From the IMG/VR virus record IMGVR_UViG_3300034196_000024, positions 1 through 57,283 of that record: a stretch of 57,283 bases of DNA; one strand, given 5' to 3'. Positions 3,370-44,973 of the stretch are shown in pieces. Position 1 is the stretch's first letter; each line of letters opens with the position of its first letter. Origin of the DNA: a virus. The notes beneath the pieces are model-generated. The model was not told the origin of the DNA. It searched no databases and saw only the letters and a program-made list of their open reading frames with translations. The position numbers and the translations under genes are program-made.

Positions 3370-4164
3370 ATGGCCGAGTTCCGTGACCTGCAGTCTGACT
3401 ATGAGGAGCGCCGGCTGGCTGCTCGAGCCGCACACAGGGCCAAGATCGTGGACCGTGACAAGTCGGTGCCGCTCGACATGCGGAACGCCGACTTGCGCGG
3501 CATCGACCTCGCCGGGCATGACCTGACCAACATCGACTTCAGCCACGCGCTGTTCCACAACGCCAAGCTCGCGGGGTCGACGTTCTCGGGCGACCGGATG
3601 GAGGGGGTGACGTTCGAGAACACCGATGCTCGTAGTGCTGACTTCTCGCGCGCCGACCTCAACCGCAGCCACCTCGCCGCCAGCCGCCTGGAGAGTACTG
3701 ACTTCTTCCAGGCCAACCTGGAGCACGCCGTCCTGGTGCAGTGCCAGCTGAGCGACGCGACGTTTACCTCTGCCAACCTCTTCGGGGTGAACTTCGTGGG
3801 AGGGGGCTTCCGAGACACGGGGGGCAACCTGCTGATGGTCACGGGGATGGCCTCGGGCATCGGCACGATGGTCCCCACCCACAGCGGGTGGCAGGTGAGG
3901 GTCGGCTGCTGGAAGGGCACGGTCGACTCGCTGCAGGAGCTCATCCGGCAGGACACCGGATGGCCCGAGGCCTACGGCCACGAGCTCCAGCGCCGACGCC
4001 CGGTGCTGCAGGCGTTCATTCAGCTGGCCAGGGTCTACATGGAGACCTACCCCCAGATGATCGAGCAGGCCAAGAACGCCTGGGGGCCGAAGCCGAAGCC
4101 GGCTGTCGCTGAGTTCTCCCTGACCCCGCCGGTGGTCGATGCCCACGACGACGAGCTCTTCTGA
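3370..4164 (+). CDS. Pentapeptide-repeat protein
   Basis: 264 residues. From about residue 35 to 165 the sequence follows the A(D/N)LxG-type five-residue periodicity (NADLRGIDLAGHDLTNIDFS and onward), which builds a right-handed quadrilateral beta helix. Some family members mimic DNA and protect gyrase; whether this one does is unknown. The C-terminal 100 residues form a separate helical domain with several Trp (HSGWQV, CWKGTVDSL) seen in many pentapeptide proteins. Start ATG follows AAGGAG. It leads its own operon. Confidence 0.8.
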   Translation: MAEFRDLQSDYEERRLAARAAHRAKIVDRDKSVPLDMRNADLRGIDLAGHDLTNIDFSHALFHNAKLAGSTFSGDRMEGVTFENTDARSADFSRADLNRSHLAASRLESTDFFQANLEHAVLVQCQLSDATFTSANLFGVNFVGGGFRDTGGNLLMVTGMASGIGTMVPTHSGWQVRVGCWKGTVDSLQELIRQDTGWPEAYGHELQRRRPVLQAFIQLARVYMETYPQMIEQAKNAWGPKPKPAVAEFSLTPPVVDAHDDELF

Positions 4165-35736: not shown

Positions 35737-36030
35737 ATGCCCTACCTAGTTGTGCTCCAGTTCCGCAATCATGAGGATCTGGACATGTTCTACAACGTTC
35801 ACAATGATGACGCGACCGAGGGGTTCGTGATGGGCGAGTACTACCTGCCCTCCACCAACACCTACTGCCGCTGCAACCCTAAGACTCGAGTCCGGGGTGA
35901 CAACTGGAAGCGCCACGCCAAGTATGGCCTGTTCGTCTGCAAGGTCTGCGGTAAGCCCAGCAAGGCTTGGCGGATGGGCTTCCTGGCTCGCCTCGGTGAG
36001 GCTCTCGGCAAGAACCAGCGGCCTGTCTGA
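35737..36030 (+). CDS. Zinc-ribbon protein, second of tandem pair
   Basis: 97 residues from ATG 35737. N-terminal MPYLVVLQFRNHEDLDMFYN parallels the upstream protein; cysteines in YCRCN and FVCKVCGKPSK should bind one zinc. Its stop overlaps the next start (TGATG). Function unknown. Confidence 0.6.
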   Translation: MPYLVVLQFRNHEDLDMFYNVHNDDATEGFVMGEYYLPSTNTYCRCNPKTRVRGDNWKRHAKYGLFVCKVCGKPSKAWRMGFLARLGEALGKNQRPV

Positions 36031-36500
36031 TGCAGACCTTCCTTCCCTATCGCGACTTCATCAGTAGTGCCATGGTGCTGGACCGTCAGCGACTTGGCAA
36101 GCAGCGGGTCGAGACCATGCAGATCATGAAGGCACTCACGGTTCCCGGAGCCGGTTGGGCCAACCACCCCGTTACGAAGATGTGGCGGGGGTATGAAGGT
36201 TCTCTGATCAGATACCAAGAAGCCATCTGCCATGAATGGGTGAGTCGAGGCTACAAGGATACTTGCCTTGCCAAGACCTGGGCACTCTATGACGAGTTCA
36301 CCAAGTCAGACACTGACTACGCCAACAGTCATCGATTCACGGCTCCTCCCTGGTGGGGCCTGAAGCGCTTCCATAGCGCCCATCGGGCCAACTTGCTGCG
36401 TAAAGACTCAGCGTACTACGGGCAGTTCGCCTGGCGCGAGGAGCCCTCGGACATTTACTGGTATCCCCGCCTTGACAGCAGCGGATGCCTGGTGGGATAA
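36030..36500 (+). CDS. Pyrimidine-dimer-glycosylase-family-like protein
   Basis: 156 residues. MQTFLPYRDFISSAMVLD, RLGKQRVETMQIMKAL and NHPVTKMWRGYEGSLIRYQE match the MSMEG_6728-like family, grouped by fold with DenV-type pyrimidine dimer glycosylases. Cellular activity of these actinobacterial members is not established. A conserved-looking PPWWGLKRFHSAHRANLLRK follows. It could repair UV damage. It overlaps the SNF2 gene's promoter. Confidence 0.55.
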   Translation: MQTFLPYRDFISSAMVLDRQRLGKQRVETMQIMKALTVPGAGWANHPVTKMWRGYEGSLIRYQEAICHEWVSRGYKDTCLAKTWALYDEFTKSDTDYANSHRFTAPPWWGLKRFHSAHRANLLRKDSAYYGQFAWREEPSDIYWYPRLDSSGCLVG

Positions 36501-36501
36501 T
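36472..36501 (+). promoter_or_regulatory. Promoter, leaderless, for helicase
   Basis: TTGACA (36472-36477), 18-base spacer, GATAAT (36496-36501), then CGACTC and ATG 36508. It lies inside the end of the upstream gene and repeats the 6-base leaderless spacing. Confidence 0.7.
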
Positions 36502-36507
36502 CGACTC

Positions 36508-38076
36508 ATGCCTCAGAAATACCGGTTCAAACAGCGCCCGTACAAGCATCAGGTGTTGGCTGTCAAGAAGCTGCTGGCCACTGGCTGGGGTGGCGCGCTC
36601 TTGATGGAGCCTCGTACGGGTAAGACGAAGGTGGCCATCGACTACATGTCGATCCTTCACCAAGCTGGGCATGTCAATCGCGTGCTCGTGGTGGGCCCCA
36701 CCGTCGCCGCCGGGGTGTGGAGTCAACAGCTTGAGGCGAACTGCCCCCTGCCATACTCTTTTCTTCACTGGAACCGGAAGATCAGGAAGACTACTCGTCG
36801 GCGAGCAGTAGCAGGACTGAATGGTCGGAAGCAACGAGTGACCGTCAGAAACACTCAGTATCAGGCTCTGCCCCCGTTCGGTCGTGATCGACTGGACGTT
36901 GTATTCCTGAACTACGACGCCTTCGCTGCCCCTGGCGCCATCCGCAAGAAGACTGACGAAGAGATCATTCGCTCTCGTTCTCGTGGCGGTCGGTTCGACA
37001 TGAAGAAGGCGATCATCGCCTGGCAGCCCCAGCTGATCATCCTGGATGAAAGCCACCGGATCAAGACGCCATCTGCCAAGAAGTCCACCATGATCCACTC
37101 TCTTCAGAAGATCCCTGACTACCGAGTTATCATGACCGGTACAGTAGTGACCAAGAGCAAGCGACTCTTCGACGTCTACAGCCAGTGGAAGTTCCTCAAC
37201 CCCGAGCGATTCGGAGGGATGACCTTCGCCCAGTTCAAGACTCGGTATGGCAAGTGGGAAGCGCGCGAGAAGTACTCGGTGTGGAAGGGTAACCAGAACG
37301 AGGACGAGCTCCATGCTCTGATCCACCAAGATGCCTTCAGCATTACCCGAGAGGAATGCTACGACCTGCCTCCGGTAACGTCTCAGATCATTCCCGTCGA
37401 GCTTGAGGAGTCTGCCGAGCTCTACGACCAGATGGCTGAAGACATGGTTGCCCGCATCTATACGGGGGAGATCACCGAGGCTTCAATCCGGCTGGTTCAG
37501 ACCTTGCGCCTGCAGCAGATCACCAGTGGTATTAGCAAGACCTCACCCTCCATCGAATTCCCGCGAGGTCGGCTCGTAGTCATCGGCTCAGAGAAGCTGA
37601 GGGCGATCCAGAATCGCCTCGAAGACCTCATGGAGATGGATGAGAAGGTGGTTATCGGGGCCCTCTTCAAGGCTGACATCGCTCGACTCCAGGCTCTTGT
37701 GAAGAAGCTCAAGGTCCCTTGCTTCACCATCCAGGGGGGAATGAAGGACGCAGATCGAGACAAGGCCTGGCAGCAGTTCCCGAAGGTAAAGGGTGGTGCC
37801 GTCTTCATCGGTCAGCCCGCGGCCGCCGGTGAGGCTATCGACTTGTCTTGCGCCAGCATCATGCAGTGGTACTCCCTACCTTCTTCCTGGGTTAACTACA
37901 CTCAGTTCTCAGACCGCGTGGCCCTGAGCGGCCGGCCGGTTTTCTACGAGTACTTCCTCGCAACGGGGACCGTTGACTACCTCCGCAAGGAGTCCTTGGA
38001 CGAAGACACTAGCATTGGGAAGAAGATGATCTCTAGCCCCGAACGACTGCTCCGGTTGCGAGAATCGGGCCTTTGA
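36508..38076 (+). CDS. SNF2/DEAD-type helicase
   Basis: 522 residues. Motif I MEPRTGKT (33-40), motif II LIILDESHRIK (177-187), motif III VIMTGT, and a C-terminal RecA-like half ending in an SF2 motif VI-like SDRVALSGR. This is the compact SNF2-like helicase common in phages, an ATP-driven DNA translocase for replication or recombination. No nuclease domain is fused. The ATG is at the predicted transcription start. Confidence 0.85.
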   Translation: MPQKYRFKQRPYKHQVLAVKKLLATGWGGALLMEPRTGKTKVAIDYMSILHQAGHVNRVLVVGPTVAAGVWSQQLEANCPLPYSFLHWNRKIRKTTRRRAVAGLNGRKQRVTVRNTQYQALPPFGRDRLDVVFLNYDAFAAPGAIRKKTDEEIIRSRSRGGRFDMKKAIIAWQPQLIILDESHRIKTPSAKKSTMIHSLQKIPDYRVIMTGTVVTKSKRLFDVYSQWKFLNPERFGGMTFAQFKTRYGKWEAREKYSVWKGNQNEDELHALIHQDAFSITREECYDLPPVTSQIIPVELEESAELYDQMAEDMVARIYTGEITEASIRLVQTLRLQQITSGISKTSPSIEFPRGRLVVIGSEKLRAIQNRLEDLMEMDEKVVIGALFKADIARLQALVKKLKVPCFTIQGGMKDADRDKAWQQFPKVKGGAVFIGQPAAAGEAIDLSCASIMQWYSLPSSWVNYTQFSDRVALSGRPVFYEYFLATGTVDYLRKESLDEDTSIGKKMISSPERLLRLRESGL

Positions 38077-38101
38077 CTTCCGAACGCGGTAATGATAGAG
38101 T
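38073..38101 (+). promoter_or_regulatory. Promoter for nucleotide-metabolism operon
   Basis: TTGACT (38073-38078), 17-base spacer, TAGAGT (38096-38101), then TATTCC. Almost identical to the late promoter at 7916-7944 (TTGACT, TAGAGT, TATCCC), so the two may share timing. Confidence 0.7.
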
Positions 38102-38130
38102 TATTCCACACCAACTTGAGCGGAGGAAGC

Positions 38131-38718
38131 ATGATCATTCTGGAAGGCCCCGATGGTGGGGGTAAGAGCACACTGGCAAAGCAGCTGGCGGTTCTCTGGG
38201 ACCTGCCCATCGCGGAACGAGTGGTCTCCAAGGACACCGAGGCCATGATCGATCTTAAGGCCTGGACCGAAGAGAACGTCCGCAACATGGGGCCGCTTCA
38301 GGTCTACGACCGCCACCGCCTGATCTCGGAACCGATCTATGGCCCGATCCTTCGGGCTGGTCGACCGCAGCCTGGGTTCGAGTCGCTGGGCTGGCTGAGT
38401 GCGATGACGCAGGAGTTCTACCGTCACCAGCCCATCATCATCTACTGCATCCCCCCGCTCGAGGTGGTGATGGAGAACCTCAGGGATGACCCCGACAACG
38501 AGGTGGTCAGGGACCAGATCCAGTCGATCTATGCCCTGTACACCACTCGAGCAGCCATGGACGTCGCCCTTCGCCCGACCATGACCGCCATCTGGGACTA
38601 CACCACCGATGGTCGAGAGGACCACCCGCTGGCTACCTTCCGTCGATGGACTGCCCAGATCAACCACATCAAGGACATCGACCGGCTTCGTGACCAAGTA
38701 AGGAAGGCTTCCAAATGA
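38131..38718 (+). CDS. Deoxynucleoside monophosphate kinase
   Basis: 195 residues. P-loop GPDGGGKS (6-13), then YDRHRLISEPIYG, the thymidylate-kinase-like DR motif. It phosphorylates a dNMP with ATP. The lid region is reduced. GGAGGAAG precedes ATG 38131. As first gene of the operon with two thymidylate-synthase-like enzymes it could phosphorylate a modified dNMP (inference). Confidence 0.75.
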   Translation: MIILEGPDGGGKSTLAKQLAVLWDLPIAERVVSKDTEAMIDLKAWTEENVRNMGPLQVYDRHRLISEPIYGPILRAGRPQPGFESLGWLSAMTQEFYRHQPIIIYCIPPLEVVMENLRDDPDNEVVRDQIQSIYALYTTRAAMDVALRPTMTAIWDYTTDGREDHPLATFRRWTAQINHIKDIDRLRDQVRKASK

Positions 38719-39248
38719 CCGCCGATGACGTGCCCGGCTGGGACCGCTTGAGCAAGCTGCTCGAGGCCCAGAGGGAGCTGCAGCTTCACGCCAAGCCGCT
38801 CAACCGTGACCCGAGCAAGATCACCGATCCCGAGGAGAGGGCCCAGTTCATCAAGGACATGGTGCTGGCCCTCACCGACGAGCTGCACGAGGCGCTCGAT
38901 GAGGTCGGGTGGAAGCCCTGGGCTACATCCCGACACGTGAACCGGGACGCCTACATGGGCGAGCTCATCGATGCCTTCCACTTCTTCATGAACCTCATGC
39001 TGGTGGTCGACATGACCGCCGACGAGCTCTTCTTGGGGTACATGGAGAAGCGGCAGAGGAACAAGGCTCGGTGGGCTGCCGAGGGTGGCTACACCGGTCT
39101 CGACAAGTGCTCCGAGTGCAAGCGGGCCATCGACGACATCGCTCACCACCTGGGGTTGCCCAAGGAGCGAGTCTTCGTACATGGGCCTGATCGGGGACTG
39201 CTTGTCTGCCTCGAGTGCGCTGGGCACCCGGTGATCGTCGATGACTGA
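38715..39248 (+). CDS. Dimeric dUTPase / MazG-fold NTP pyrophosphatase
   Basis: 177 residues. The all-alpha pyrophosphatase motif is visible: LALTDELHEALDEVGWKPW with paired acidic residues, and GELIDAFHFFMNL, then MTADELFLGYMEK. This matches dimeric dUTPases, which hydrolyse dUTP to dUMP. A C-terminal extension of 45 residues carries C-x2-C twice (KCSECKR and CLECAG), an added zinc ribbon not usual for the family. It overlaps both neighbours by 4-8 bases. Confidence 0.75.
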   Translation: MTADDVPGWDRLSKLLEAQRELQLHAKPLNRDPSKITDPEERAQFIKDMVLALTDELHEALDEVGWKPWATSRHVNRDAYMGELIDAFHFFMNLMLVVDMTADELFLGYMEKRQRNKARWAAEGGYTGLDKCSECKRAIDDIAHHLGLPKERVFVHGPDRGLLVCLECAGHPVIVDD

Positions 39249-39390
39249 GAAGCCGCCCATCCCTCGGTCTGCTGAGATCTTCGCTCAGCTGATGACCATC
39301 CTGGTCATGATCGCTCTGTTTGGTCTCGCCCTCGTGCTCGCCGCCCTGATCTTCTTCGGATTCATCACTCTCCTTGGAGCCATCCTGTGA
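39241..39390 (+). CDS. Small membrane protein (49 aa)
   Basis: Residues 15-48 (FAQLMTILVMIALFGLALVL onward to the end) are a continuous hydrophobic stretch long enough for one or two spans, after a short polar N-terminus. It overlaps the dUTPase stop and the next start (TGTGA), so it belongs to the operon. A link to nucleotide metabolism is not obvious. Confidence 0.6.
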   Translation: MTEKPPIPRSAEIFAQLMTILVMIALFGLALVLAALIFFGFITLLGAIL

Positions 39391-40418
39391 GGTCGTACTC
39401 CGCCGATACCCTGACCGAGCTGCACGAAATGCTCTGTCGCTCCCTGATCGAAGCCAAGGAGGACGAGCTGGATGTCATCAGCTCGGTGGATGTCCAGATC
39501 CACGATGTCATCGCCGAGGCCAAGTCGATGGCCTGGGAGTTCGACCTGAAGTCCATGTGGCTGACCAAGAGCCGCTGGTCACAGATGGTCCGCCAGTACA
39601 TCGACCCCGAGGAGCTCGAGGCCTGGATCGGCAACTGCACGGCCAAGATCGGAACCAAGGGTCGGGGGATCGCGGTTCTTCGTACCAAGGTCGTCAAGCC
39701 TCGGGGTGGGGCCGCAACGGGGCACACCAACAAGGAGACCCGACGCTGGGGCTCTTGCATGCTGGCCATCTCGTACAAGGCTCGCCCTCGGCCCCAGATC
39801 ACCCTCCACTCGCGTACCTCCTACCTGGGGTATATCGGAGCTCTCGACCTCTCAGTGGCCTGGATGATCGCGAGGTACCTGGCCAAGGAGATGGGGATCA
39901 AGGTCGAGGACATCTCCTTCGTCTGGCAGATCGAGGCGATCCAGTGGCACAACTTCAAGTCGCTGGCCTACGTGCTGAACCACAAGGACGTCGAGATCAG
40001 GGACAACTACCGGGCCATGCTTGCGGGTGAGGCCAGTAGCTTGACGGTGCCTCAGAAGCGATCCGTCCTCGCGGCCCCAGCCCTGAAGCTTTCGCGCAAG
40101 TGGCTCCGCAAGGTGGTTGCCGACGACGTTGCCGGCCGCACCTATGGCGACATGACCTACAACACCTTCCGCCGGATCGTGAGGCGCTTCCACACCGAGG
40201 TCTACGGTGAGGACTACGCTCGGGGCTTCGAGGGGTGGAGCTACTACAAGAAGGGGGAGAATGCTGGAGAGCAGAAGGAGTTCTTCAAGTTCTACCCCTT
40301 GCTCCCTCACTGCTCGATCGATACCCTTGACTTCTCGCCGATCGGTATGCCGATCACTCGGAAGTACGGCGAACCCTTCGTCGGAGGCGAAACAGAGGAG
40401 GATGACGACGATGAGTGA
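39387..40418 (+). CDS. Thymidylate-synthase-superfamily protein 1 (Asp type)
   Basis: 343 residues. C124 in WGSCMLAIS is the likely nucleophile, R143 in HSRTSYLGY the phosphate ligand, and D154 in GALDLSVAW lies 11 residues after it, where dUMP-methylating ThyA has Asn (FNIA). FVWQIEAIQWH then replaces the usual FVW...H segment. In T4 dCMP hydroxymethylase that Asn is Asp, which selects cytosine. So a dCMP-modifying enzyme is predicted. The C-terminal 120 residues, ending in acidic residues, are unassigned. It starts at GTG 39387. Confidence 0.68.
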   Translation: MRSYSADTLTELHEMLCRSLIEAKEDELDVISSVDVQIHDVIAEAKSMAWEFDLKSMWLTKSRWSQMVRQYIDPEELEAWIGNCTAKIGTKGRGIAVLRTKVVKPRGGAATGHTNKETRRWGSCMLAISYKARPRPQITLHSRTSYLGYIGALDLSVAWMIARYLAKEMGIKVEDISFVWQIEAIQWHNFKSLAYVLNHKDVEIRDNYRAMLAGEASSLTVPQKRSVLAAPALKLSRKWLRKVVADDVAGRTYGDMTYNTFRRIVRRFHTEVYGEDYARGFEGWSYYKKGENAGEQKEFFKFYPLLPHCSIDTLDFSPIGMPITRKYGEPFVGGETEEDDDDE

Positions 40419-40629
40419 CCGTCCGATTAACAGTACGGTCTCGATGGATGTACAACAGCTCACCATCGGGCAGCTGCGGGAGTTCTTGGACGCGATCAAC
40501 TGGGCTCCCGCTACGACTCCCATCCGACTGACCGAGCACCGAGGTAATCAGCTCGACCCCACCTACTGGACGATCCAGGCGACTGTCCCCCTTCGCCCCC
40601 CTGCCCGATCAACCGTCGACCCGTACTAG
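40411..40629 (+). CDS. Small hypothetical protein (72 aa)
   Basis: ATG 40411 overlaps the upstream stop by 8 bases. The core QQLTIGQLREFLDAINWAPA is a helix; the rest is beta (TYWTIQATVPL). Similar short proteins occur in many phages; function unknown. Confidence 0.6.
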   Translation: MSDRPINSTVSMDVQQLTIGQLREFLDAINWAPATTPIRLTEHRGNQLDPTYWTIQATVPLRPPARSTVDPY

Positions 40630-40668
40630 ACGCTTTGACCCGCTTCCCTGCGATCCTGGAGAACTGAT

Positions 40669-41535
40669 ATGACCCTCACTGCACGATCGGGCGACGACTT
40701 CGAGGCCCTGTTCAAGTACTTCCAGCACGAGCTCATCCAGACCGACATCGTCGCCACGGGCGAGTGGCAGTCGCAGGACATCAGCGACAAGCCCATGCTC
40801 GCGACCTACGAGATGACCAACGTCAGCTTCGACCTCGCCCTCCCGGCTGGTGTGGAACAGTTGGCCGAGATCACCGGCGCACACCTGCCCTGGGCTGAGG
40901 ACCACTTCCAGGAGCGAGTCGGGGGCGAGCCGCTGAACCCGCCTCCCGCTGAGGAGTGGTGGCCCTTCGCTCAGAAGGTCAACCGCGACCACAAGTCCGA
41001 GGCTGGGGGGAAGTTCTCGCACACCTACCCCGAGCGCATGTGGCCGAAGTGGGCAGGCGAGACCTATGAGGACATGAGCGAGTCCATCTCGGTCGCCTGG
41101 GAACCCATGCACGGCATCCGGTTCGACTATGGCGATCTGCAGGACGTGGTCAACCAGCTCGCTCGGGGACCACTCACTCGGCAGGCCTACCTACCCATCT
41201 GGTTCCCCGAGGACACGGGTGCGGTGCACGGCAAGCGGGTCCCCTGCACGCTCGGGTACCACTTCATGATCCGCAACAACCTGCTTCAGATCACGTACTA
41301 CATGCGCTCGTGCGACCTCATCCGCCACTTCCAGGACGACGTCTACATGGCTGGCCGCCTCGCCCAGTGGGTGGTTAACGAGCTGAACAGCCTTTGGACG
41401 CACCAGGGGGGTACTGGCCAGCCTCCGCTGAAGGTCGGGTCGCTCTACATGCACATCGTCAGTCTCCACTGCTTCGCCGGCGACCAGGCGATGATGAGCT
41501 ACCGAGACAAGAAGGGCCTGGCATGGAACGTCTGA
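40669..41535 (+). CDS. Thymidylate-synthase-superfamily protein 2 (Asp type)
   Basis: 288 residues. VPCTLGYHF (C193), RSCD (R213-D216), exactly 20 residues on as in ThyA, then HFQDDVYMA with D224 at the Asn position, and MHIVSLH (H262) where ThyA has HLYSNH. RQAYLPIW (R171) may bind phosphate. So the fold and nucleophile are clear, but the Asn is Asp and the usual Tyr is Val. It should methylate or hydroxymethylate a pyrimidine dNMP, perhaps dCMP. GATCCTGGAGAACTGAT precedes the ATG. Confidence 0.78.
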   Translation: MTLTARSGDDFEALFKYFQHELIQTDIVATGEWQSQDISDKPMLATYEMTNVSFDLALPAGVEQLAEITGAHLPWAEDHFQERVGGEPLNPPPAEEWWPFAQKVNRDHKSEAGGKFSHTYPERMWPKWAGETYEDMSESISVAWEPMHGIRFDYGDLQDVVNQLARGPLTRQAYLPIWFPEDTGAVHGKRVPCTLGYHFMIRNNLLQITYYMRSCDLIRHFQDDVYMAGRLAQWVVNELNSLWTHQGGTGQPPLKVGSLYMHIVSLHCFAGDQAMMSYRDKKGLAWNV

Positions 41536-42071
41536 CTCGGCCTGAGATGCTTATGGAGATGGCCCAGATCGTCGCCAAGCGGGGTACTTGCCCCCGGCTC
41601 CAGGTGGGCGCGGTCTTCAGCAAGGAAGGCCGGGTGATCGCCATGGGCTATAACGGAGTACCGGCCGGCCTCCCCCACTGCGAGCACATCCTCTGGGAAG
41701 TGGGCAAGGGTACGCCCTGTCCCGAAGAGCTCAAGGCCACGGCTCGGCACTTCAAGATCTTGCCTAAGCCGGGCTATACCTGGGAATGGGATGGACAGGC
41801 GCTCAACGTCTACCAGGGCTCGGAAGTCCGGGGCTGTCAGCGAGCTGAGCACGCCGAGCGGAATGGCATCGCCTTCGCTGCTCGCTATGGGGTGGCACTC
41901 GATGGGAGCGAACTGCATGTGACTCACGCCCCCTGTGCGGCCTGCGCCATGAGCATCATCAATGCCGGCATCGTCACCGTGACTTACGACACTCCGTACC
42001 GCATCACTGCTGGTGTGGAGCTGCTCAGAAGCGCGGGACTCGAGGTCATTGCCCTCCGGCTTCTCGAGTGA
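41523..42071 (+). CDS. dCMP deaminase
   Basis: 182 residues. Zinc ligands are seen as H110-A-E112 and P137-C138-A-A-C141, with E112 catalytic. N-terminal RGTCPRLQVGAVF and MGYNGVPAGLPHC are typical of phage and bacterial dCMP deaminases. A 40-residue insertion (about 55-95) before the HAE motif is longer than usual. It converts dCMP to dUMP. It overlaps the upstream synthase by 13 bases. Confidence 0.88.
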   Translation: MERLTRPEMLMEMAQIVAKRGTCPRLQVGAVFSKEGRVIAMGYNGVPAGLPHCEHILWEVGKGTPCPEELKATARHFKILPKPGYTWEWDGQALNVYQGSEVRGCQRAEHAERNGIAFAARYGVALDGSELHVTHAPCAACAMSIINAGIVTVTYDTPYRITAGVELLRSAGLEVIALRLLE

Positions 42072-42235: not shown

Positions 42236-42430
42236 ATGGCCACATTCGAAGAGACCGAAGACTCGATCACCGAGTCTAGCGCGGTCATTGTCGACATGAC
42301 CTGGGACGAACTGAAGCGGCTGCCGGGCATGAACCGCATCCGGAAGGGCATGCTGCGCGCTGCTCTCGAGCACTGGGTCGAGTTCGGGTATGTCGTGGTG
42401 CCTGACGACTACCGCGAAGATGAGGCCTGA
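42236..42430 (+). CDS. Small helical protein (64 aa)
   Basis: Acidic N-terminus, then WDELKRLPGMNRIRKGMLRA with HWVEFGYVVVPDD. A helix-turn-helix is possible. The stop overlaps the polymerase start (TGATG). Confidence 0.55.
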   Translation: MATFEETEDSITESSAVIVDMTWDELKRLPGMNRIRKGMLRAALEHWVEFGYVVVPDDYREDEA

Positions 42431-44973
42431 TGCTCCAGGGGATTCGTAACCCCAACTGTACGATGTGCAAGTTGCATCGGGCAACTGAAGTAGTCTGTAA
42501 GATCGGGTCGGGGCCGCCTTCTGCCAAGATCATGGTGGTCGGCAAGATGCCCAACTCTCGTGACTACCAACGCGACTTCGAGATGCAGCTGCTCGAGCTG
42601 GGGCTAGACCCCGGGGAGATTTACTACACCCAGGCACTGAAGTGCCGAACGTTCGACCTGAACCCCAGCAATGGGGATGTGAAGAAGTGCAAGCCCTACC
42701 TTGACCAGGAGATCGAGCAGGTTCAGCCAAAGTTCATCTTGGCCCTAGGTAACGAAGCCCTTCTTGCTACCACCGGTAAGTCGGGCATTACCAAGTATCG
42801 CGGCCGGCCGTTCGATCACCCGAGCGGGGCTAAGGTTCTTGCCACTGTTTCACCATCAGCGGTCAACAGAAACCCCGGCCAGAAGCCTGCATACATGGCC
42901 GATCTTCGTCTCTTCGTTAACTTGGTCAAGGGTCTGGATGGGGGCATCAAGAAGCCCAAGTACTTGACTGTTGATACCAAGGAAAAGCTGAAGAAGCTTG
43001 AGAAGATCCTCACCCGCTGTCTCGAGATCGACTTCGACATAGAGACCACTGGTGAGTACTATCGTGATGATGGCAAGATCGTCTCGCTCTCAGCTACCTG
43101 CGAGATTCTGGGGGATGATGGCAAGGTTAGGCTGTTCGTCTTCGCCATCCCTCTCTATCACCCCGAGTCAGTCTGGCAGCGATCCTGGAAAGCGGTGCTT
43201 CGGTTCCTCAAGAAGGTCTTCGAGAGGATTCCCAAGGTAGTCGCTCACAACTCATCGTTCGACTGCAAGTGGATGGTCTGGAATGGGGTCGAGATGCTGC
43301 CCACATTCGACACCATGCTCGCTGTCCACATCTTGAATGAGAACGTACAAAAGGGCCTCAAGCCCCAGGCACAGGCCCGACTGGGTGTGGAACCCTGGGG
43401 TATCGATACGAGAGACCTGCTCTCCCAGCCATTGTCTGACATTCTGCCCTACAATGTTCTAGACACTTGGTACATGTATCACATTCGACAGCAGTTGAAG
43501 AAGGAGCTGAAAGAACAGCCCCGTCTTGCCCGAGTGCTGATGAAGCTCACCATGCCGGCACAGCGCGACCTGATCTACTCCGAGATTCGTGGGATTTGGA
43601 TCGACGTAGACCGGCTCAAGGAACGCCACCCTATCGCTCTCGAGAACTTGCGCGAGGTTGAGCAACGCATTCGGATAGCCGCCAATCTGGGGACTGACAA
43701 GGATGACCCCTGGGGTAGTACCTACCCTGGCCACCCTGACTGGCCGGTAGATGCTAAGGGTAAGCCACGGGCTGAGAACTTCAACGCCTCGATCTTCGCA
43801 CGATGGATGCTCTTCGAGTGGTGCGAGCTGCCCATTGCGGAGCGCGGTAAGGACAAGGATGATGGCCGGCCGGGTGACCCCAGCATGGCTGAGGGTGTTC
43901 TCATGGCTCTTAAGGACTTGCACCCTGTAGTACCCGCCATGCTCGATCGAGTAACCAAGCAGAAACACATCAGTAGCTTCTTCAACCCTTACTTGGAGCT
44001 GTACGATGAGGAATGGCGAATCCATACTAACTTCAAGCTCGCTGGCACCGTTACAGGTCGGCTCAGTAGTGGAAAGGACGACGCTGATAAGATATCTGGA
44101 CGCGCGGGCAAACTTAGGGGTGTTAACCTCCAGCAAGTACCTCGTGATCCGTTTATCCGAGGACTCTTTGGAGCTCCTCCCGGTTGGACATTCGTTGAAG
44201 CCGACTACTCGCAGGTCGAGCTCCGAATCGCCGCCTTCCTAGCCAACGAGACAACGATGAAGCACCTCTACTCCATCGGTGCTGACATCCACACCATCAC
44301 GGCAGCTCGCATCGCAGGTATCCCCGAGAGCGCGATGACGAAGAAGATCCGCAAGGAACTGGGTAAGCCGGTTAACTTCGGCTTCCTCTATGGCATGGGT
44401 TGGAAGAAGTTCATCCAGACGGCCTTCGAGACCTACGGTTCGTCCTTCGACGAAGCCGGGGCACGAGCTGCTCGAGAGACCTACTTCCAGCTCTACCCCA
44501 AGCTTCTCCCCTGGCACAATCGGCAGCGACGCCTGGTCAATGAGTACGGTCGCGTAGAGAGCCCCCTAGGACGCGTGAGGCACCTGCCTGACATCAACTC
44601 GCCCGACGAAGGGGTGCGCCGCGAAGCCGAACGACAGGCGATCAACTCACCCGTGCAGGGGTTCGCTTCTGACCTCGCCGTACTGAGCATGATCCATGTT
44701 AACCGGCAATTCAGAGAACGCAACATCGCAGCACACTGCCTGGGGTTGGTACATGACGCCATTAACCTCGAGGTTCGCAATGACATGCTGAGTCAAGCAC
44801 TACCCATTCTGAAGGATACGATGGAAGATATGAGCATTGTACGCAAGACCTTCGGGGTGCATGTCGACATCCCCATCGTCGCTGATGTCTCGGTGGGGCA
44901 GCACTGGGGTGACAAGAAAGAGCTCACCCCTGACCAGGTCTACGACTTCAAGCTGGAATACAAGGGAGCATGA
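42430..44973 (+). CDS. DNA polymerase I-type with N-terminal UDG-like Fe-S domain
   Basis: 847 residues. Residues 1-170 are a family 4-type uracil-DNA glycosylase fold with four cysteines set for a 4Fe-4S cluster (C10, C13, C72, C87), but its active-site motifs are degraded (GKMPN at 38-42 in place of GEAPG; VSPS at 140-143 in place of HPS). Residues about 195-370 are a 3'-5' exonuclease ([17 protein letters not shown]). The polymerase part has motif [11 protein letters not shown], motif [16 protein letters not shown] and motif C GLVHDA. A UDG-like N-terminal domain is known in SPO1-type polymerases. It replicates the phage genome. Confidence 0.9.

What the first reader, a model, noticed from the sequence alone, without database searches (positions are those of the whole stretch)
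39387..41535. Two thymidylate-synthase-like enzymes, both with Asp at the Asn position that selects dUMP
Both proteins keep Cys and Arg at ThyA-like spacing and carry Asp 11 residues after the Arg (D154; D224). In T4 dCMP hydroxymethylase the same Asn-to-Asp change gives dCMP preference. With a dNMP kinase, dUTPase and dCMP deaminase in the same operon, this suggests a modified-cytosine pathway (methyl or hydroxymethyl) in phage DNA. The two are very diverged from each other, so they may do successive or different steps.
Basis: partly seen in the sequence, partly recalled or inferred. Interest (0 to 1): 0.66.

Follow-up and report, generated by a model that had tools for sequence, protein, structure and literature searches.

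The report
Paired phage enzymes for altered cytosine
This virus, like many unrelated phages, carries two neighbouring and very different enzymes built on the thymidylate-synthase plan, both fitted for cytosine nucleotides, which suggests that it makes a chemically altered cytosine for its DNA; one of the two belongs to a family of unknown function.

Summary
Protein 1 (39387-40418, "TS1") and protein 2 (40669-41535, "TS2") both have a catalytic-type Cys, then Arg, then Asp exactly 11 residues after the Arg. The Arg-Asp spacing holds in 62/62 TS1 and 73/73 TS2 relatives. TS2 is a thymidylate-synthase (TS) family member by Pfam and fold. TS1 has no Pfam hit and sits in a PHROG of unknown function, but its confident model (pLDDT 93.5) has the TS fold; its best match is a phage dCMP hydroxylase. 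TS1 lies just upstream of TS2 in 57 of 62 viral loci that hold enough sequence, and the pair also occurs in phages of Gram-negative hosts. A dNMP-kinase-like gene, a dUTPase/dCTPase-type gene, a dCMP deaminase and PolA-UDG flank it. A pre-replicative cytosine-modification cassette is the best reading. Methyl or hydroxymethyl is not established: both proteins lack the Gly and Tyr conserved in folate-dependent enzymes, and closest-fold relatives include a flavin-dependent dCMP 5-hydroxylase. TS1 seems to have no room for the segment carrying the folate-site Trp and catalytic Tyr, so it probably acts as partner or second step rather than a second hydroxymethylase. No modified base has been measured.

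The parts
38092..38718 (+). dNMP-kinase-like P-loop protein (phrog_761, 'thymidylate kinase'), 208 aa
   Evidence: PHROG match E 1.7e-16; same PHROG as RB69 ORF045c, which lies near the RB69 TS-family cytosine enzyme
38715..39248 (+). all-alpha NTP pyrophosphatase, dUTPase_2 (possible dCTPase/dUTPase), 177 aa
   Evidence: PF08761 E 1.5e-10; phrog_18650 E 7e-28 and phrog_173 E 3.7e-17, both of which also match RB69 gp56 dCTPase/dUTPase
39387..40418 (+). TS1: TS-fold protein, phrog_13667 (unknown function), 343 aa, C124/R143/D154, invariant Y71 and R263
   Evidence: PHROG E 8.6e-107; invariant columns; model; fold matches
40411..40629 (+). small ORF (72 aa) between TS1 and TS2; small ORFs lie at the same place in Shrew (gp75) and Huwbert (gp66) but with no obvious similarity
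40669..41535 (+). TS2: thymidylate synthase family protein with Asp224 at the Asn177 position, 288 aa, C193/R213/D224/H267
   Evidence: PF00303 E 5.5e-7; 24 invariant columns; model; fold matches
41523..42071 (+). dCMP deaminase (ATG start at 41523 overlaps the TS2 end)
   Evidence: PF00383 E 4.9e-20; phrog_174 E 1.8e-46
42430..44973 (+). family A DNA polymerase with an N-terminal uracil-DNA-glycosylase-like domain and exonuclease domain
   Evidence: PF00476, PF03167, PF01612; conserved next to the cassette in 63 of 73 loci
36472..38076 (+). SNF2-type helicase upstream of the cassette, conserved neighbour
   Evidence: PF00176 E 1.1e-11

Best explanation
A phage cassette that makes a C5-modified dCMP before replication, using two TS-fold proteins. 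TS2 binds dCMP (Asp224 reading the cytosine, Cys193 attacking C6) and adds a small group at C5, most likely hydroxymethyl. The kinase-like protein would raise the product to the di/triphosphate, the dUTPase_2 protein would clear dUTP and perhaps dCTP, and the dCMP deaminase would feed dUMP to dTMP synthesis. TS1 is a second TS-fold cytosine-nucleotide enzyme or subunit, tied to TS2, that seems to have no room for the canonical folate segment: it either completes TS2 as a partner or does a second, folate-free step on the nucleotide. Shown here: folds, invariant catalytic and specificity residues, gene linkage. Inferred: substrate, product, order of steps, physical association.
For: C/R/D invariant in both families with exact R-to-D spacing. 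Asp at position 177 and Thr/Ser at 147 in TS2 match the cytosine-type pattern of T4 gp42 and RB69 enzymes, against Asn and His in ThyA (PMC8670742). TS2 keeps the Glu58, Tyr94 and Asp169 equivalents (E77, Y120, D216), and Ser167/Arg126 equivalents that MilA work ties to deoxy substrates (S214, R171, PMC5175136). It ends about 21 residues after H267, like the short T4 and RB69 enzymes, so it lacks the C-terminal part that closes ThyA. TS fold for TS1: VIA Z 16.1 to 9iqu (185 aligned, rmsd 3.6 A), 15.0 to MilA. Pairing: 57/62 loci, all five extra contigs from genome bins, actinophages and Gram-negative phages. RB69-like kinase and dCTPase families. Huwbert has its own Asn-type ThyA besides the pair.
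Against: No modified base has been measured in any phage with this cassette that I could read about. TS2 has lost Gly173 (H/Y/F) and Tyr209 (mostly F), which are fixed in the ThyA and T4 families aligned here, so a folate-dependent reaction is uncertain. No glycosyltransferase or other decorating enzyme was found among the larger ORFs scanned or in the conserved neighbourhood. Sequence-only comparison of TS1 with TS families is weak (hhalign E 0.011 to the RB69 family, 0.034 to TS2).
Confidence: 0.6

Rival explanations
1. The cassette makes 5-hydroxy-dCMP directly with a flavin instead of folate, as the RB69 / HY126 AfhB enzyme does; TS2 or TS1 is the hydroxylase.
For: AfhB (9iqu/9iqc) is the top fold match of TS1 (Z 16.1) and ties for the top of TS2 (Z 18.6). 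Like the RB69 family, both lose Gly173; TS2 mostly has Phe at 209 and TS1 Leu at 176 as RB69 does. The kinase PHROG is shared with RB69's hydroxycytosine cluster. The RB69-type enzyme is described as a 5-hodCMP synthase of the TS superfamily (PMC13390438).
Against: TS2 keeps Asp169, which the RB69 family has changed to Asn in 12/12; ThyA folds score within 0.2 Z of AfhB for TS2. No flavin reductase is conserved in the neighbourhood. The residues that bind FAD in AfhB were not available to test.
Confidence: 0.25
2. TS1 is not an independent enzyme but an obligate subunit: TS1 and TS2 form a heterodimer in place of the usual TS homodimer, sharing residues across the interface.
For: TS1 was not found without TS2 except where the contig ends; TS2 without TS1 was seen only in five loci, all with Asn at position 223 (as in T4), while every Asp223 locus with enough sequence has TS1. 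TS1 seems to lack the helix C-E segment of other TS enzymes.
Against: C124, R143 and D154 are invariant in 62/62 TS1, which argues for chemistry of its own. TS1 (mostly) and TS2 both keep a basic residue at the Arg126 position and have lost Arg127, so no complementary loss is seen. No complex prediction could be run.
Confidence: 0.35
3. TS2 makes 5-methyl-dCMP, and the adjacent dCMP deaminase turns it into dTMP: a cytosine-first route to thymidylate with canonical DNA.
For: TS2 and the deaminase genes overlap and are close together in most loci; an Asn-to-Asp TS is known to become a dCMP methylase (cited in PMC8670742).
Against: TS2 lacks the C-terminal closure of ThyA that favours hydride transfer; Huwbert keeps a normal ThyA as well; it leaves TS1 unexplained.
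Confidence: 0.1
4. Ordinary thymidylate supply: both proteins work on dUMP and the phage DNA is unmodified.
For: TS2 and its relatives are annotated as thymidylate synthase; no base modification is reported in the library for these phages.
Against: Asp177 is invariant in both families and Thr147 replaces His in TS2; substitution to Asp switches TS to dCMP (PMC8670742).
Confidence: 0.07

Closest known systems
T4 gp42 deoxycytidylate 5-hydroxymethylase (1b49/1b5d)
   Same: TS fold, Cys, Arg, Asp at 177, Thr at 147 (TS2), short C-terminus, works with dCTPase/dUTPase and kinase functions
   Different: T4 family keeps Gly173, Asn176 and Tyr209 in 35/35; TS2 has H/Y/F, mostly D, mostly F; T4 has no TS1-like partner known to me
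Phage HY126 AfhB / RB69 ORF048c 5-hydroxy-dCMP synthase (9iqu, 9iqc)
   Same: closest fold of TS1, tied for TS2; loss of Gly173, Phe209 (TS2), Leu176 (TS1); same kinase PHROG nearby in RB69
   Different: RB69 family has Asn169 where TS2 has Asp and TS1 Tyr/Glu; single TS-like gene in a sugar-gene cluster; flavin use not tested here
MilA CMP 5-hydroxymethylase (5b6d/5b6e)
   Same: TS fold, Asp at 177, second-best fold match of TS1 (Z 15.0)
   Different: MilA prefers ribo-CMP with Lys133/Ala176; TS2 has the deoxy-type Arg and Ser
Canonical ThyA thymidylate synthase
   Same: fold, catalytic Cys, phosphate Arg
   Different: Asn177, His147, Gly173, Tyr209 and closing C-terminus are absent from TS2 and TS1
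phrog_13667 / phrog_34294 (unknown function)
   Same: TS1 is a member of phrog_13667; Gram-negative TS1-like proteins match phrog_34294
   Different: neither has an assigned function; some records label the Gram-negative form 'pyrimidine hmase synthase'

Membership tests
Thymidylate synthase superfamily (PF00303 fold) | sequence match above Pfam cut-off | tested here: met
   TS2 29.4 bits vs cut-off 24.3. TS1 fails by sequence: no Pfam match
Thymidylate synthase superfamily (PF00303 fold) | TS fold | tested here: met
   TS1 Foldseek E 2.1e-7, prob 1.00, VIA Z 16.1; TS2 VIA Z 18.6
Thymidylate synthase superfamily (PF00303 fold) | nucleophilic Cys and phosphate-binding Arg | tested here: met
   invariant in both families
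dCMP hydroxymethylase (T4 gp42 type) | Asp at the Asn177 position | tested here: met
   D154 in 62/62 TS1, D224 in 73/73 TS2
dCMP hydroxymethylase (T4 gp42 type) | Gly173 and Tyr209 conserved as in the T4 and ThyA families | tested here: not met
   TS2 H/Y/F and F/H/W; TS1 I/L/M and H
dCMP hydroxymethylase (T4 gp42 type) | methylene-THF-dependent hydroxymethylation of dCMP | not testable with these tools
   needs enzyme assay
5-hydroxy-dCMP synthase (RB69 ORF048c / AfhB type) | closest overall fold | tested here: inconclusive
   top for TS1 (Z 16.1 vs MilA 15.0), tied with ThyA for TS2 (18.6 vs 18.4)
5-hydroxy-dCMP synthase (RB69 ORF048c / AfhB type) | Asn169 and Val173 as in the RB69 family | tested here: not met
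   TS2 Asp/His, TS1 Tyr/Ile
5-hydroxy-dCMP synthase (RB69 ORF048c / AfhB type) | flavin binding and O2-dependent hydroxylation | not testable with these tools
   needs purified protein
Canonical thymidylate synthase (ThyA) | Asn177 and His147 | tested here: not met
   Asp and Thr/Ser (TS2), Asp and Met/Leu (TS1)

The most novel reading that the evidence does not exclude
TS1 and its diverged relatives are an unnamed branch of the TS fold that works without folate: either as the obligate partner in a two-protein TS, or as a Cys-dependent enzyme that reacts with a C5-substituted dCMP made by TS2, giving a new cytosine modification in phages of actinobacteria, proteobacteria and others.
Probability: 0.35. 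Interest if true: 0.8.

Novelty: new variant of a known kind. Interest (0 to 1): 0.6.

Why it matters
Cytosine modification decides which restriction, CRISPR and modification-dependent defences a phage escapes. Phages with this cassette include Mycobacterium phage Muddy, which (from my own knowledge) has been used in therapy against M. abscessus. A two-gene TS-fold module conserved in phages of very different hosts, one half of it mostly annotated as hypothetical, gives a clear set of isolated phages (Muddy, Serbin, Huwbert, Lebethron) in which one mass-spectrometry run would show whether a new or known modified cytosine is present.

Tried and rejected
Searching solved structures by TS1 sequence profile gave no hit; profile-profile comparison of TS1 with TS2, T4, ThyA was weak or meaningless, RB69 the least weak. 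A scan of viral contigs with the Serratia TS1-like protein found nothing and the TS1 alignment was too diverse for a genome scan. Strict complementarity of phosphate Args between TS1 and TS2 (a heterodimer signature) was looked for and not seen. A one-to-one link between Asn/Asp223 and TS1 was rejected: TS1 also occurs with Asn223. One intermediate TS2 profile contained the Huwbert ThyA by iteration, so its score against ThyA was ignored and a clean set used. The 5-hydroxycytosine pathway preprint (Lee 2025) and a paper on Gordonia phage GTE2 were not held.

Full report
What is there. The window is a single IMG/VR virus record of 57,283 bases. In order on the + strand lie a helicase (36472), a kinase-like protein (38092), a dUTPase_2 protein (38715), TS1 (39387-40418), a small ORF (40411-40629), TS2 (40669-41535), a dCMP deaminase (41523) and a family A polymerase with a uracil-glycosylase-like domain (42430). 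The nearest isolated relatives are Curtobacterium phage Shrew (TS1 71% identical) and Microbacterium phages Huwbert and Triscuit.

TS1 C124, R143, D154 and TS2 C193, R213, D224 are at the stated places. In 62 TS1-type sequences Y71, C124, R143 and D154 are invariant; an alignment of 52 of them gives Y71, C124, P136, R143, D154 and R263. In 73 TS2 sequences that cover the site C, R and D are invariant; the R-to-D distance is 11 without exception in both families. TS2 is a Pfam thymidylate synthase. TS1 has no Pfam or NCBIfam match and belongs to phrog_13667 of unknown function.

Fold. AlphaFold gave TS1 pLDDT 93.5 / pTM 0.90 and TS2 84.5 / 0.87. TS1's best solved matches are 9iqu and 9iqc, a phage HY126 dCMP hydroxylase crystallised with dCMP and FAD (Z 16.1 and 15.9), then MilA CMP hydroxymethylase (15.0), then ThyA enzymes (about 12). 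For TS2 the hydroxylase (18.6) and ThyA enzymes (18.4 and below) tie. Among viral models TS1's best match is an uncharacterised Myoviridae protein, then an uncharacterised Ackermannviridae protein and a Pseudomonas phage PMBT14 protein, then TS and dCMP hydroxymethylases. PMBT14 carries the TS1-like gene of the Gram-negative group, and its 262-residue uncharacterised protein is taken to be that gene's product, so the group is tied in by structure as well as by its C-R-D motif.

How the two differ. TS1's model goes from a helix at 61-71 to a helix at 74-88 and a strand at 95-99 that leads to the Cys strand at 125-131. I read the second helix as the one that precedes the Arg126 strand in ThyA. 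If so, the roughly 45-residue segment of ThyA that holds Trp80, Trp83 and Tyr94 is missing. Without coordinates this is an inference from element order and spacing. TS2 keeps that region (Y120 aligns with Tyr94 and E77 with Glu58) but ends soon after H267, as T4 and RB69 enzymes do, so it lacks the C-terminal part that closes ThyA.

Diagnostic positions (E. coli numbering). ThyA: His147, Asp169, Gly173, Asn177, Tyr209. T4 gp42 family: Thr, Asp, Gly, Asp, Tyr. RB69 5-hydroxy-dCMP synthase family: Thr, Asn, Val, Asp, Phe. TS2: Thr/Ser, Asp, His/Tyr/Phe, Asp, mostly Phe. TS1: Met/Leu, Tyr/Glu, Ile/Leu/Met, Asp, His. Asp177 together with position 147 is the published mark of TS proteins from cytosine-modified phage contigs (PMC8670742), so a cytosine substrate is well supported for TS2 and likely for TS1. 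The chemistry is not settled: TS2 mixes features of the folate enzymes (Glu58, Tyr94, Asp169) with features of the flavin enzyme (no Gly173, Phe209). Glu58 and Tyr94 are also present in the RB69 family alignment, so Asp169 is the one feature that sets TS2 apart from it on the folate side.

Pairing. TS1 or a diverged TS1-like gene lies upstream of TS2 in 57 of the 62 viral loci with enough sequence or with the gene in view: 46 by profile, 6 by a Gram-negative profile, 5 by the C-R-x10-D motif only. These loci are not independent (some contigs are near copies). The five exceptions all have Asn at TS2 position 223, and no Asp223 locus with enough sequence lacks TS1. All five contigs found among bacterial and archaeal genome bins have the pair too, one by motif only. 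The gene order kinase, dUTPase, TS1, TS2, deaminase, PolA is kept in Curtobacterium, Microbacterium, Streptomyces and Mycobacterium phages (in Muddy the gene at the deaminase position is annotated hypothetical but groups with the deaminases) and in Serratia, Yersinia and Pseudomonas phages with small insertions. Clustering of neighbours in 73 loci showed no conserved glycosyltransferase, flavin reductase or other modifying enzyme (families judged by position and sequence), and 28 window ORFs scanned by Pfam gave none.

Context. The kinase and dUTPase genes belong to the same PHROGs as RB69 ORF045c and RB69 gp56 dCTPase/dUTPase, which fits clearing the normal pool and phosphorylating a modified dCMP; this is inference. 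Huwbert carries a normal Asn-type ThyA besides TS1 and TS2, which argues that the pair is not there to make dTMP.

Verdict. A cytosine-modification cassette is the best reading (0.6). Hydroxymethyl is the favoured product, with 5-hydroxy the main rival. The more interesting part is TS1, an unannotated, widely paired branch of the TS fold that seems to lack the folate segment and whose role (partner or second step) is open.

Noticed in passing
window 42430-44973: Family A polymerase fused to an N-terminal uracil-DNA-glycosylase-like domain; from memory the usual catalytic motifs look altered (VVGKMPN, VSPSAV), so it may be a non-cleaving sensor.
   Followed up: no
window 36030-36500: Pyrimidine-dimer DNA glycosylase (PF03013) just upstream of the helicase, with a homologue in six of the neighbourhoods compared, Shrew among them.
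   Followed up: no
L048:4095-6004: One viral contig carries two tandem TS1-type genes upstream of TS2.
   Followed up: no
L002:12242-13045 (Microbacterium phage Huwbert gp68): Third TS gene, a canonical Asn-type ThyA, directly after TS2.
   Followed up: partly
L259-L263: Contigs binned as Polynucleobacter, Acidobacteria, Spirochaetaceae, Pacearchaeota and Proteobacteria carry the phage cassette; they are probably phage contigs in the bins.
   Followed up: partly
window 40669-41535 and L094:10498-11214: The best NCBIfam match of TS2 and of the RB69 enzyme is the methanogen thymidylate synthase TIGR03283, far below its cut-off, hinting at a shared deep branch.
   Followed up: no
window 3370-4164: Pentapeptide-repeat protein.
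   Followed up: no
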